A stretch of 35,700 bases of DNA from Candidatus Saccharimonadota bacterium (GTDB lineage Bacteria; Patescibacteriota; Saccharimonadia; Saccharimonadales; Saccharimonadaceae): contig WQTP01000039.1 of assembly GCA_009786195.1 (NCBI GenBank), forward strand, positions 1-35,700, given 5' to 3'. The position numbers and the translations under genes were made by a program. The notes beneath the pieces were generated by a model. That model did no database searches, was not told where the DNA came from, and saw nothing but the letters and a program-made list of their open reading frames with translations. The first letter of the stretch is position 1; each line of letters opens with the position of its first letter. This document shows positions 7,213-9,902 of this stretch, in pieces.

Positions 7213-8214
7213 ATGAACAAGTTGGTTACGATCGTTATTCCGGCTTATAACGAGGAGAAATCGTTGCCGTCGCTACTGGAACGTTTAGAAAATCTGGTCG
7301 AAGTTAGTCGTGATTATAATTTTGAATTCTTATTTATCGACGATGGTTCAAAAGACAAGACGTTGTCTATTTTACAACATGCATCCGAAATCGATCCGCA
7401 TCTTTCTTATCTCAGTTTTTCCCGAAATTTCGGCAAAGAAATCGCCGTAGCCGCTGGTATCGACCACGCTGATGGTGATGCGGTGGTAATCATGGACGCC
7501 GACGGTCAAGAACCGCCCGAGATGATCCCCGCGATGATTAAATGGTGGGAAAAGGGTTACGACGATGTCTACGCCCGTCGCAGTTCGCGCCACCATAGTA
7601 GCTTTTTCAGGAGTTTGACCTCGAAACTGTATTATCGCACTCTGCAGAAAATGTCGCGTGTACCAATCCAGATCGATACTGGCGATTTCCGCTTATTTTC
7701 TCGTCGCTGCATTCTAGCGCTCAGACAATTTCGCGAATCAGCACGACAAAACAAAGCTCTGTTCAGCTGGATCGGTTATCGCAAAAAAGAACTTTCTTTC
7801 GAACAGGGCGAGCGCGGCGGTGGTAAAACCAAATGGAAATTGGGTGTTCTTTCCCCTGGCAACTCCCTGATCAACCTGGCGATCGACGGTTTTACATCGT
7901 TTACAACTATCCCCCTGCGCCTCGTTACGCTGTTTGGTCTGTTAATTAGCGCCAGCGCGGCTATTTACATCGTTGTTGTTCTGATTCAGGCGTTTATGGG
8001 TCTGCCGCGCCTCGGTGGTTATAACACGATGCTGATTATTATCCTGTTTTTGGGCGGCGTACAGATGGTTTCTCTCGGTATTATTGGCGAATATGTCGGT
8101 CGAATTTTCAGCGAGACCAAAAATCGCCCTCTTTATCTGATTGAGGAAATTCATAAAGCAAAGGTAGCTAGCAGTGGCAAAAAAGACGATCCCGAAAAAC
8201 TTGATCAACAGTAA
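7213..8214 (+). CDS. GT2 family glycosyltransferase, DPMS/GtrB/ArnC-like with C-terminal TM helices
   Basis: VTIVIPAYNEEKSLPSLLERL, FIDDGSKDKT, AVVIMDADGQEPPEMIPAM; two C-terminal TM segments. Confidence 0.93.
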   Translation: MNKLVTIVIPAYNEEKSLPSLLERLENLVEVSRDYNFEFLFIDDGSKDKTLSILQHASEIDPHLSYLSFSRNFGKEIAVAAGIDHADGDAVVIMDADGQEPPEMIPAMIKWWEKGYDDVYARRSSRHHSSFFRSLTSKLYYRTLQKMSRVPIQIDTGDFRLFSRRCILALRQFRESARQNKALFSWIGYRKKELSFEQGERGGGKTKWKLGVLSPGNSLINLAIDGFTSFTTIPLRLVTLFGLLISASAAIYIVVVLIQAFMGLPRLGGYNTMLIIILFLGGVQMVSLGIIGEYVGRIFSETKNRPLYLIEEIHKAKVASSGKKDDPEKLDQQ

Positions 8215-8605
8215 AGAGTTTCGCTTCGTTATCGTCGGCGGCGTCAACACTGTGATCGATTTCGCATTTTATAATTTTCTTAGCAAAATTTTCAGTCTGG
8301 CGCTACCCGTCGCTAACATGATTTCGAGTTTTATCGCTATGTTGTTTAGTTTTTTTATGAACAAAAAGTGGACATTTCGCTCGAGTGGGAAAAATTACCT
8401 CCGCGAAATCGTTTTGTTTTTCATTTTCACCATCATTAGCATTTGGGTGATCCAAAGCGGCCTGATTTGGCTAGTTGAAAATACCTTTTCCACCATCGAT
8501 TGGCAAAATTTTTGGACCAAAAATCTGCTCAAAATCGCCGCGTCTATTCCATCGTTAATTTGGAATTATGTGACGTATAATCGTTTTGTGTTCAAGGATA
8601 AATAG
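8174..8605 (+). CDS. GtrA-like membrane protein
   Basis: FRFVIVGGVNTVIDFAFYNFL...FMNKKWTFRSSGK...NYVTYNRFVFK; overlaps the GT2 gene by 41 nt. Confidence 0.88.
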   Translation: MAKKTIPKNLINSKEFRFVIVGGVNTVIDFAFYNFLSKIFSLALPVANMISSFIAMLFSFFMNKKWTFRSSGKNYLREIVLFFIFTIISIWVIQSGLIWLVENTFSTIDWQNFWTKNLLKIAASIPSLIWNYVTYNRFVFKDK

Positions 8606-8627: not shown

Positions 8628-9393
8628 TTATTCTAATTCTAATAGTGATGTTCTATCGTCTGGGCTACTCATATTATAAAGATAGCCATTTGGAGAAATA
8701 AGTCTGTAATCACCTATTAAATATTCACTCGAATTATCAATTATTTCCATTCTAGGAAATTGCGCACGCATATCTGACACAATTCTCATGAACTGCGCAT
8801 AACTCACTTCGTATAGGTGTTGATTTTCTACTGCTAGCCCTCTCACGGGAGTAAACTGAAGTAATTTCCACTTTGTAACACCTTTTTCCTGCAAAGAGTG
8901 TCCCACATCCCCAATTTTATCGAGATTGAGTCTAGTTATCACTGAATTGATTGATACTTCAATATCATTTTCCCTCACAAGGTCTATACTATTTAGAATA
9001 TTTTGTTTATGATTTCCAGTTCGCCCAAGTAATTCGTTAATTCCATCATCTACTGAATCAATGGATAATGTAATTTTAGCAAGTCCATTTTTGATTTGTC
9101 CAATCTTTTTCGTTGTTAATAGGCTGCCGTTTGTTGTTAATTTATTTTTGATTCCATAACTATCTGATGTTTTTATTAGTTCGCCCAAATGGGGGACAAG
9201 AGTCGGCTCGCCTCCTTGAAATGTTAGGTCTGTTACACCAAGCTCGGCAAGTTTCGTAATAATTAAAAGATGTTGTTCTTTTGTTAAGTTGTTGTCTTCT
9301 AAATATCGAAAGCAATACCCGCACTTTTGATTGCATTTATCTGTTATTGCCCAAGCGACCTTAGAACTCTCTCTCTCTCTCTCTCATTTGCAT
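8628..9393 (-). CDS. Radical SAM enzyme, viperin-like; start ATG out of frame via a (GA)9 tract as sequenced
   Basis: The ORF track reports only 8628..9188 from a TTG. The same frame continues upstream as SSKVAWAITDKCNQKCGYCFRYLEDNNLTKEQHLLIITKLAELGVTDLTFQGGEPTLVPHL, which includes CX3CX2C and a GGEP motif. ATGs at 9393 and 9387 are out of frame relative to it across the GA tract. Confidence 0.85.
9367..9385 (-). repeat. Dinucleotide microsatellite (CT)9C on + strand, i.e. G(AG)9 on the coding strand
   Basis: Direct reading of ttagaaCTCTCTCTCTCTCTCTCTCatttgcat (19 nt). Confidence 0.97.
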
Positions 9394-9434: not shown

Positions 9435-9902
9435 TCATATGTCGCTAATTTTCTTCAGCACAATGTGCCGGTCGCGGCCTTCGCCCTCGGATTCGGAGGT
9501 GAGTTGGGAGTAATCAGCCAGAACTTTGTGGACCACGCGACGTTCGGCGGCGTTCATGGGTTTGAGACTCATCGCTTCACCGGTGTCTAAAACTTCTTTG
9601 GCCCACTTTTCGGCTTGGTCGGCGATGCGATCATTGTGACGACGTTTGTAATCGGCCACATCCAAATTCACTCGGGTTAATTCAGCTTCTTTCTGAATTA
9701 AAGTGGTTCGCACTAAAAATTGCAAACTGCGCAAGGTATCACCATTCTTGCCAATCAACAAGTTCGATAAATAAGTATTCGGCACCGAAAGTTCGATCAC
9801 ATCCTCATCAGCCGTCGCATAAACATCAACGTTAATACCAAAAAACGATAGTACGTCCTCGACGTATTTTTTGGCAAATGTTATCGATTCTTCCCTATTC
9901 AT
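9435..9902 (-). CDS. jag: Jag/KhpB-type KH-R3H RNA-binding protein
   Basis: KH core LLIGKNGDTLRSLQFLVR and R3H-like SLKPMNAAERRVVHKVLADY..TSESEGEGRDRHIVLKK; adjacent to yidC. Confidence 0.9.
   Translation of the reverse strand: MNREESITFAKKYVEDVLSFFGINVDVYATADEDVIELSVPNTYLSNLLIGKNGDTLRSLQFLVRTTLIQKEAELTRVNLDVADYKRRHNDRIADQAEKWAKEVLDTGEAMSLKPMNAAERRVVHKVLADYSQLTSESEGEGRDRHIVLKKISDI

What the first reader, a model, noticed from the sequence alone, without database searches (positions are those of the whole stretch)
8628..9393. Radical SAM gene with a start codon running directly into a (GA)9 tract: candidate phase-variable (OFF as sequenced) locus
The coding strand reads ATGCAAAT-G(AG)9-TTCTAAGGTCGCTTGG. 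From either ATG (9393 or 9387) the frame reads M(QM)RERERE-F-stop. The intact radical SAM frame (SSKVAWAITDKCNQKCGYCF...) has a TGA at 9386-9384 just before the tract and no ATG/GTG/TTG between the tract and the CX3CX2C cluster. Adding one GA unit (21 nt) or losing two (15 nt) joins ATG to the radical SAM frame with no stop. The coding frame on the 3' side is otherwise uninterrupted to the natural stop, so the repeat is the only lesion. Slipped-strand dinucleotide tracts at the 5' end of ORFs are the classic contingency-locus design, known for surface and restriction genes in pathogens. A radical SAM enzyme in a small CPR-type genome would be an unusual target. The ORF track misses the first ~60 codons, including the FeS motif, so an automated annotation would probably call a truncated protein.
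Basis: partly seen in the sequence, partly recalled or inferred. Interest (0 to 1): 0.85.

Follow-up and report, generated by a model that had tools for sequence, protein, structure and literature searches.

The report
Slippage-switched viperin-like gene in CPR bacterium
A viperin-like enzyme gene in a tiny symbiont-type bacterium starts with a stuttering GA repeat that probably switches it on and off by copying errors, and the same genome and its relatives carry dozens of similar repeats in promoters and gene starts, a switch not reported for these bacteria in the papers we could search.

Summary
The minus strand reads ATGCAAATG followed by G(AG)9 (9385-9367). As sequenced, both ATGs end at a stop after 8-10 codons. 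The 246-codon radical SAM frame beyond the tract has no usable start. Tracts of 9, 15, 21 or 27 nt restore the full protein; other odd lengths do not.

The locus is not isolated. The genome holds about 63 distinct slippage-prone tracts (57 poly-G of 9-11 nt, 6 GA of 14-19 nt). Their length distribution is bimodal and chance cannot give it. Ten lie between TTGACA and a -10 element; others sit inside ORFs. Two paralogous promoters differ by exactly one GA unit. MutS was not found. Relatives carry GA tracts of 15-51 nt, often just after start codons, notably of secreted proteins.

Phase variation is therefore well supported as a class, but at this locus no reads were available and length polymorphism is unproven.

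The enzyme's nearest profiles and structures are prokaryotic viperins. However, it misses the curated cut-off and most viperin-diagnostic residues, so I call it viperin-like, not a viperin.

The mechanism is known from Neisseria, Haemophilus and Campylobacter. The lineage (CPR) and the target are new as far as the held papers show.

The parts
9367..9385 (-). G(AG)9 dinucleotide tract, 19 nt; the proposed slippage switch
9391..9393 (-). upstream ATG
9385..9387 (-). ATG abutting the tract; favoured start, because with a 15-nt tract it gives 18 residues up to the CN of the Fe-S motif, like MKKIDKKIIVWNVTSKCN in a CPR relative
   Evidence: inference
9384..9386 (-). TGA in the radical SAM frame just before the tract, so no start lies upstream in that frame
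8628..9368 (-). open frame of viperin-like radical SAM enzyme (246 aa, GC 35.5% against 44.2% for the genome)
9312..9335 (-). CX3CX2C [4Fe-4S] motif codons (CNQKCGYC)
9435..9902 (-). jag-like gene 41 nt upstream on the same strand, behind yidC, rnpA and rpmH; no terminator found between, so read-through transcription is plausible. Context only
   Evidence: names from general knowledge
8174..8605 (+). GtrA-like membrane protein, convergent neighbour. Context only
   Evidence: name from general knowledge

Best explanation
This is a simple-sequence contingency locus. DNA polymerase slips on the GA tract that directly follows the start codon. Every gain or loss of 2 bp shifts the reading frame of a viperin-like radical SAM enzyme, so about one tract length in three is ON (9, 15, 21, 27 nt) and the rest are OFF; the assembled consensus (19 nt) is OFF. 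Shown: the tract, the frames, the intact downstream ORF, the genome- and lineage-wide class of such tracts, and one-unit length differences between paralogous promoters. Inferred: slippage at this tract in living cells, translation from the ATG beside the tract, transcription as the tail of the jag operon, and a nucleotide-modifying, possibly antiviral, activity of the ON protein.
For: Frame logic. G/C runs fall to 4 at length 8, then rise to 48 at 9, 8 at 10 and 3 at 11; A/T runs show no second mode; two congeners show the same. 73 overlapping G9 words against at most 28 in any other of 288 sampled genomes of the phylum; 67 and 147 in the two congeners. 12 tracts between -35 and -10 against 0.95 by random placement. 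(AG)7 against (AG)8 in a pair of 92%-identical promoters, and G9 against G10 in a G001 promoter family. 4 of 7 ambiguous N in G001 abut poly-G tracts. GA tracts of relatives: 9 of 18 follow an open SD-preceded start within 72 nt, against 14% of random positions; several are ON, several OFF. No MutS hit in 100 of 101 relatives, this genome included. ON-form N-terminus matches relatives in length.
Against: No read data and no orthologue of this gene in congeners or family, so length polymorphism at this tract is unproven. In 452 G000/G001 orthologue pairs no upstream tract is shared, so individual tracts are not conserved. No clear Shine-Dalgarno before either ATG and no sigma-70-like promoter just upstream.
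Confidence: 0.75

Rival explanations
1. Assembly or sequencing error: the real tract is uniformly an ON length (15 or 21 nt) and the gene is an ordinary expressed gene.
For: Consensus comes from a draft assembly in 43 contigs; contig ends and mismatches cluster at homopolymers, and the C28/C35 overlap differs by a substitution next to poly-G, as sequencing errors do.
Against: A 19-nt dinucleotide tract is well inside a short read, and dinucleotide indel errors are rarer than homopolymer ones (general knowledge). A uniform ON tract would still be a slippage-prone tract in a genome with no detectable MutS. The tract class is real in three congeners.
Confidence: 0.12
2. Decaying pseudogene: a horizontally acquired gene that lost its start by a fixed frameshift.
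For: Low GC (35.5%), no relatives in genus or family, no promoter signal.
Against: The other 246 codons are uninterrupted, all radical SAM motifs are intact, and the only lesion is in the slippage tract, one GA unit from ON.
Confidence: 0.08
3. The GA tract is a translation or regulatory element and translation starts downstream at a non-standard codon; frame does not matter.
For: GA-rich sequence can resemble a Shine-Dalgarno; no SD precedes the ATGs.
Against: No ATG/GTG/TTG lies in frame between tract and Fe-S motif; ATG-started ON forms match relatives in length; in relatives GA tracts lie after, not before, SD-preceded starts.
Confidence: 0.05

Closest known systems
Simple-sequence contingency loci with intragenic repeats (Neisseria, Haemophilus influenzae, Campylobacter jejuni, Helicobacter; PMC5084427, PMC2651432, PMC6321876, PMC2823697)
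   Same: Perfect tract near the 5' end of an ORF, unit changes shift the frame, many loci per genome, mixture of ON and OFF genes.
   Different: CPR/Patescibacteria lineage; target is a viperin-like enzyme; the genome also carries tracts in nucleotide-biosynthesis genes (purL, purM, purN, pyrF), not mainly surface genes.
Promoter-spacer phase variation (from general knowledge: N. meningitidis porA/opc poly-G/C, H. influenzae hif TA repeats)
   Same: Other tracts of this genome sit between -35 and -10 with spacer 17-19.
   Different: The locus in question is translational, not promoter-type.
Prokaryotic viperins / SAND (Bernheim et al. 2021, cited in PMC12926258; nomenclature PMC9642334)
   Same: Best profile (PADLOC pVip 156 bits; NF038283 146 bits) and most of the top structure matches; CX3CX2C, SxDS, GR, NxV and WK retained.
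   Different: Below NF038283 cut-off of 180; only 2 of 18 viperin-diagnostic residues; outside the well-supported viperin clade in the tree, though one clade is not rejected.
Phase-variable defence systems (restriction-modification, BREX pglX; general knowledge)
   Same: If the enzyme is antiviral, a bet-hedged costly defence.
   Different: No phase-variable viperin was found in the held papers.

Membership tests
SSR contingency (phase-variable) locus | Perfect tandem tract far beyond chance length | tested here: met
   19 nt, longest dinucleotide tract of 772 kb; bimodal run lengths
SSR contingency (phase-variable) locus | Tract placed so that unit changes toggle expression | tested here: met
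   ON at 9/15/21/27 nt, OFF otherwise
SSR contingency (phase-variable) locus | Same tract type switches other genes in the genome or lineage | tested here: met
SSR contingency (phase-variable) locus | Tract-length polymorphism in the population at this locus | not testable with these tools
   no reads, no second strain; only indirect signs at other tracts
SSR contingency (phase-variable) locus | Reversible switching of expression | not testable with these tools
   needs cells or Ribo-seq
Prokaryotic viperin (pVip/SAND) | Radical SAM core with CX3CX2C | tested here: met
   PF04055 1.7e-20; alignment
Prokaryotic viperin (pVip/SAND) | Score above curated equivalog cut-off NF038283 (180 bits) | tested here: not met
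   146 bits; still the best of all NCBIfam models, next moaA 86 bits
Prokaryotic viperin (pVip/SAND) | Residues shared by annotated viperins and absent from other radical SAM proteins | tested here: not met
   2 of 18 diagnostic columns; lacks N-x-H before the Fe-S motif and the K before the NxV motif
Prokaryotic viperin (pVip/SAND) | Nests with viperins in a tree | tested here: inconclusive
   7 viperins form a 95/95 group without it; AU test does not reject query plus viperins, p = 0.187
Prokaryotic viperin (pVip/SAND) | Viperin fold | tested here: inconclusive
   AF2 model pLDDT 68, pTM 0.67; viperins dominate the top hits, TM 0.6-0.67, beside BlsE and SkfB
Prokaryotic viperin (pVip/SAND) | Makes ddh-nucleotides / blocks phage | not testable with these tools
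   needs enzyme and phage assays

The most novel reading that the evidence does not exclude
An epibiotic CPR lineage without detectable MutS runs a genome-wide phasome of dozens of poly-G and GA switches in promoters and gene starts that includes nucleotide biosynthesis genes and a viperin-type enzyme making antiviral nucleotides: bet-hedged innate immunity under slippage control.
Probability: 0.2. Interest if true: 0.87.

Novelty: new variant of a known kind. Interest (0 to 1): 0.64.

Why it matters
Phase variation by repeat slippage is known mainly from host-adapted pathogens. Finding dozens of such tracts in a small-genome CPR lineage, in promoters, secreted-protein genes, nucleotide-biosynthesis genes and a viperin-like enzyme, suggests these presumed episymbionts diversify their populations stochastically. 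It gives a directly testable explanation for strain heterogeneity, and warns that automated annotation truncates or misses the OFF genes. Existing metagenomic reads could settle it.

Tried and rejected
Filing the enzyme as a bona fide viperin: at first favoured on PADLOC/NCBIfam/PDB hits, then withdrawn after the residue and tree tests.

Conserved upstream tracts in the congener: none shared in 452 orthologue pairs; whole-flank alignment mostly fails at about 75% nucleotide identity.

Loss of MutS as the reason why some family members are tract-rich: rejected, MutS is missing in nearly all relatives, rich or poor.

Contig ends at tracts as proof of population polymorphism: suggestive (8 tracts, 6 distinct, against 0.72 expected), but one overlap shows a substitution instead, so not proof.

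Viral contigs: no relative of the protein.

A GA tract beside the start in other viperin-like genes: none among the homologous loci inspected.

Empty-site comparison: the congener contig ends inside jag and the neighbours are absent there.

Full report
**Observation.** The described sequence is there, letter for letter. On the minus strand ATG (9393-9391), CAA and ATG (9387-9385) run into G(AG)9 (9385-9367, 19 nt), then TTCTAA. Both ATGs read M(QM)REREREF-stop. The radical SAM frame carries TGA at 9386-9384 and has no ATG/GTG/TTG before its CX3CX2C motif. Simulating tract lengths 9-29 shows full-length products (249-257 aa) only at 9, 15, 21 and 27 nt; 19 nt gives 8-10 aa. The ORF list begins at TTG 9188 and so loses the Fe-S motif.

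**It is not an isolated tract.** A first pattern search found GA tracts of at least 15 nt at three other places in the 772 kb genome, and reading them showed each between a TTGACA and a -10-like hexamer. I then fetched all 43 contigs and counted repeats. G/C runs fall 1461, 288, 56, 8, 4 for lengths 4-8, then jump to 48 at length 9, 8 at 10 and 3 at 11. A/T runs fall steadily (2 at length 9). GA tracts number 4, 1, 1, 2, 2, 1 for 4 to 9 units; other dinucleotides stop at 11 nt. The second mode at 9-11 G is seen in both congeners. There are 65 listed tracts (59 poly-G, 6 GA); two are repeats of the same tract in overlapping contig ends, so 63 are distinct.

**Where the tracts sit.** By the rule TTGACA (one mismatch allowed) - tract - TANNNT with spacer 15-20, 12 tracts lie in promoter spacers against 0.95 for random placement (maximum 4 in 200 trials); ten have an exact TTGACA. 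Five have the form TTGACA-N9-G9/10-TARACT or TAGAGT, and four GA tracts have TTGACA-(GA)n-TAYTYT. Others lie inside ORFs. NCBIfam names purL, purM, purN, pyrF, an MsbA-like ABC ATPase and a Nudix hydrolase among their products. Sixteen in-ORF tracts join an upstream start in frame; at least three, besides this locus, break it (C22:3593 G10, C31:1602 G10, C35:2100 GA14) (rough gene calls of my own).

**Signs of real slippage.** Promoters at C16:1837 and C32:6981 are 92% identical over 196 bp, and the difference inside the promoter is one GA unit, (AG)7 against (AG)8. In the congener G001 a family of paralogous promoters CCCCTTGACTTTTT-C-Gn-TA.ACT has n = 9 or 10. Of seven ambiguous N bases in G001, four directly abut poly-G tracts, as expected where reads disagree, though post-homopolymer sequencing error could do the same. 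Contig ends coincide with tracts more often than expected (8 against 0.72), with the same caveat. MutS_V was not found in this genome or in 100 of 101 relatives, which would favour slippage but does not explain why only some genomes are tract-rich.

**The lineage.** In 101 relatives poly-G counts are bimodal: this genus and about a dozen other genera of the family are rich, most have none. The same genomes tend to have long GA tracts (10 of 14 GA-bearing family genomes are poly-G-rich, Fisher p = 2e-5, counts taken by hand). In 288 genomes across the phylum this genome has the highest count. In relatives GA tracts of 15-51 nt often follow an SD-preceded start within 72 nt: 9 of 18 against 14% of random positions. 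Several of those genes encode proteins with an N-terminal hydrophobic stretch like a signal peptide; some are in frame (L120, and a reverse transcriptase L129), some out of frame (L122, L124, L132). This is the same design as the locus in question. Tract positions turn over fast: none of 452 orthologue pairs between G000 and G001 shares an upstream tract.

**The enzyme.** Pfam gives Radical_SAM. Its best specific models are prokaryotic viperins: NF038283 146 bits (cut-off 180; next model moaA 86 bits) and PADLOC pVip 156 bits. Plasmid-borne hits annotated as viperin family proteins match at 27-32% identity, and PDB sequence and fold searches return viperins first or nearly so, with BlsE and SkfB close by (model of moderate confidence). 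I then tested membership. In an alignment with seven annotated viperins the query keeps CX3CX2C, GGEP, SxDS, GR, NxV and WK, but it has only 2 of 18 residues that are near-invariant in viperins and rare in other radical SAM proteins; the N-x-H before the Fe-S motif and the K before NxV are missing. In a tree the seven viperins group at 95/95 without it, while the AU test does not reject it as their sister (p = 0.187). So: viperin-like, membership not established. It has no close relative in genus or family, GC 35.5% against 44.2%, and looks horizontally acquired.

**Mechanism.** The likely chain is: transcription from the jag operon (41 nt gap, no terminator seen) or from a weak leaderless-type promoter (many genes here have a -10 element 6-9 nt before the start); initiation at ATG 9387 beside the tract, whose ON forms match relatives in N-terminal length (MRERESSKVAWAITDKCN against MKKIDKKIIVWNVTSKCN); frame set by tract length; slippage uncorrected by MutS. 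Only the sequence facts are shown; slippage at this tract and the enzyme's activity are inferred.

**Known or new.** The mechanism is that of classic contingency loci (PMC5084427, PMC2651432, PMC6321876). Searches of the held papers for phase variation with Saccharibacteria, Patescibacteria or the Candidate Phyla Radiation, or with viperin, returned no paper reporting it, judging from titles, abstracts and a few passages; the one CPR paper with a hypervariable repeat concerns a coding repeat in a gracilibacterium (PMC6851277). The library is incomplete, so this is not proof of novelty.

Noticed in passing
G000 contigs C1:1993, C3:3183, C26:3086, C36:27089, C37:19134 (loci L007, L009, L047, L057/L069, L058): Promoters of the form TTGACA-N9-G9/10-TARACT (or TAGAGT) with the poly-G tract filling the spacer; likely transcriptional phase variation.
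   Followed up: partly
G000 C16:1837-1850 and C32:6981-6996 (L022, L053): Paralogous promoters, 92% identical, differing by one GA unit inside the -35/-10 spacer (17 against 19).
   Followed up: yes
G000 C30:17502, C30:22221, C30:23034, C42:3579 (L051, L063, L074): Poly-G tracts inside nucleotide-biosynthesis genes (purM, purL, purN, pyrF); phase-variable nucleotide synthesis would be odd.
   Followed up: partly
G000 C31:1602-1611 (L001, minus strand): G10 tract near the start of an ORF (ATGGAAAGTACG...), out of frame as sequenced.
   Followed up: partly
G000 C35:2100-2113 (L056): (GA)7 tract in the middle of a histidine-phosphatase (cobC-like) gene, frame broken as sequenced.
   Followed up: partly
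G001 C2:18458, 19682, 22542; C1:31639; C5:4141, 4904: Family of near-identical promoters CCCCTTGACTTTTT(T/G)C-G9/10-TA.ACT in front of neighbouring genes; what they drive was not examined.
   Followed up: no
L129 (relative's GA tract locus): Reverse transcriptase gene (RVT_1) with a 47-nt CT/GA tract 25 nt after its ATG, in frame.
   Followed up: partly
L120, L122, L124, L132: Secreted or surface-type proteins of relatives with long GA/CT tracts in the first codons, some in and some out of frame.
   Followed up: partly
G000 C43:1618-3688 (L076): Cluster of (ACC)n/(CCA)n trinucleotide repeats, perhaps a Thr/Pro-rich repeat protein.
   Followed up: no
L080-L083, L085, L093 (Patescibacteria genomes): A family of ~230-aa CPR radical SAM proteins that also hit the PADLOC pVip models; two appear to follow an arginyl-tRNA synthetase gene (judged by eye).
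   Followed up: partly
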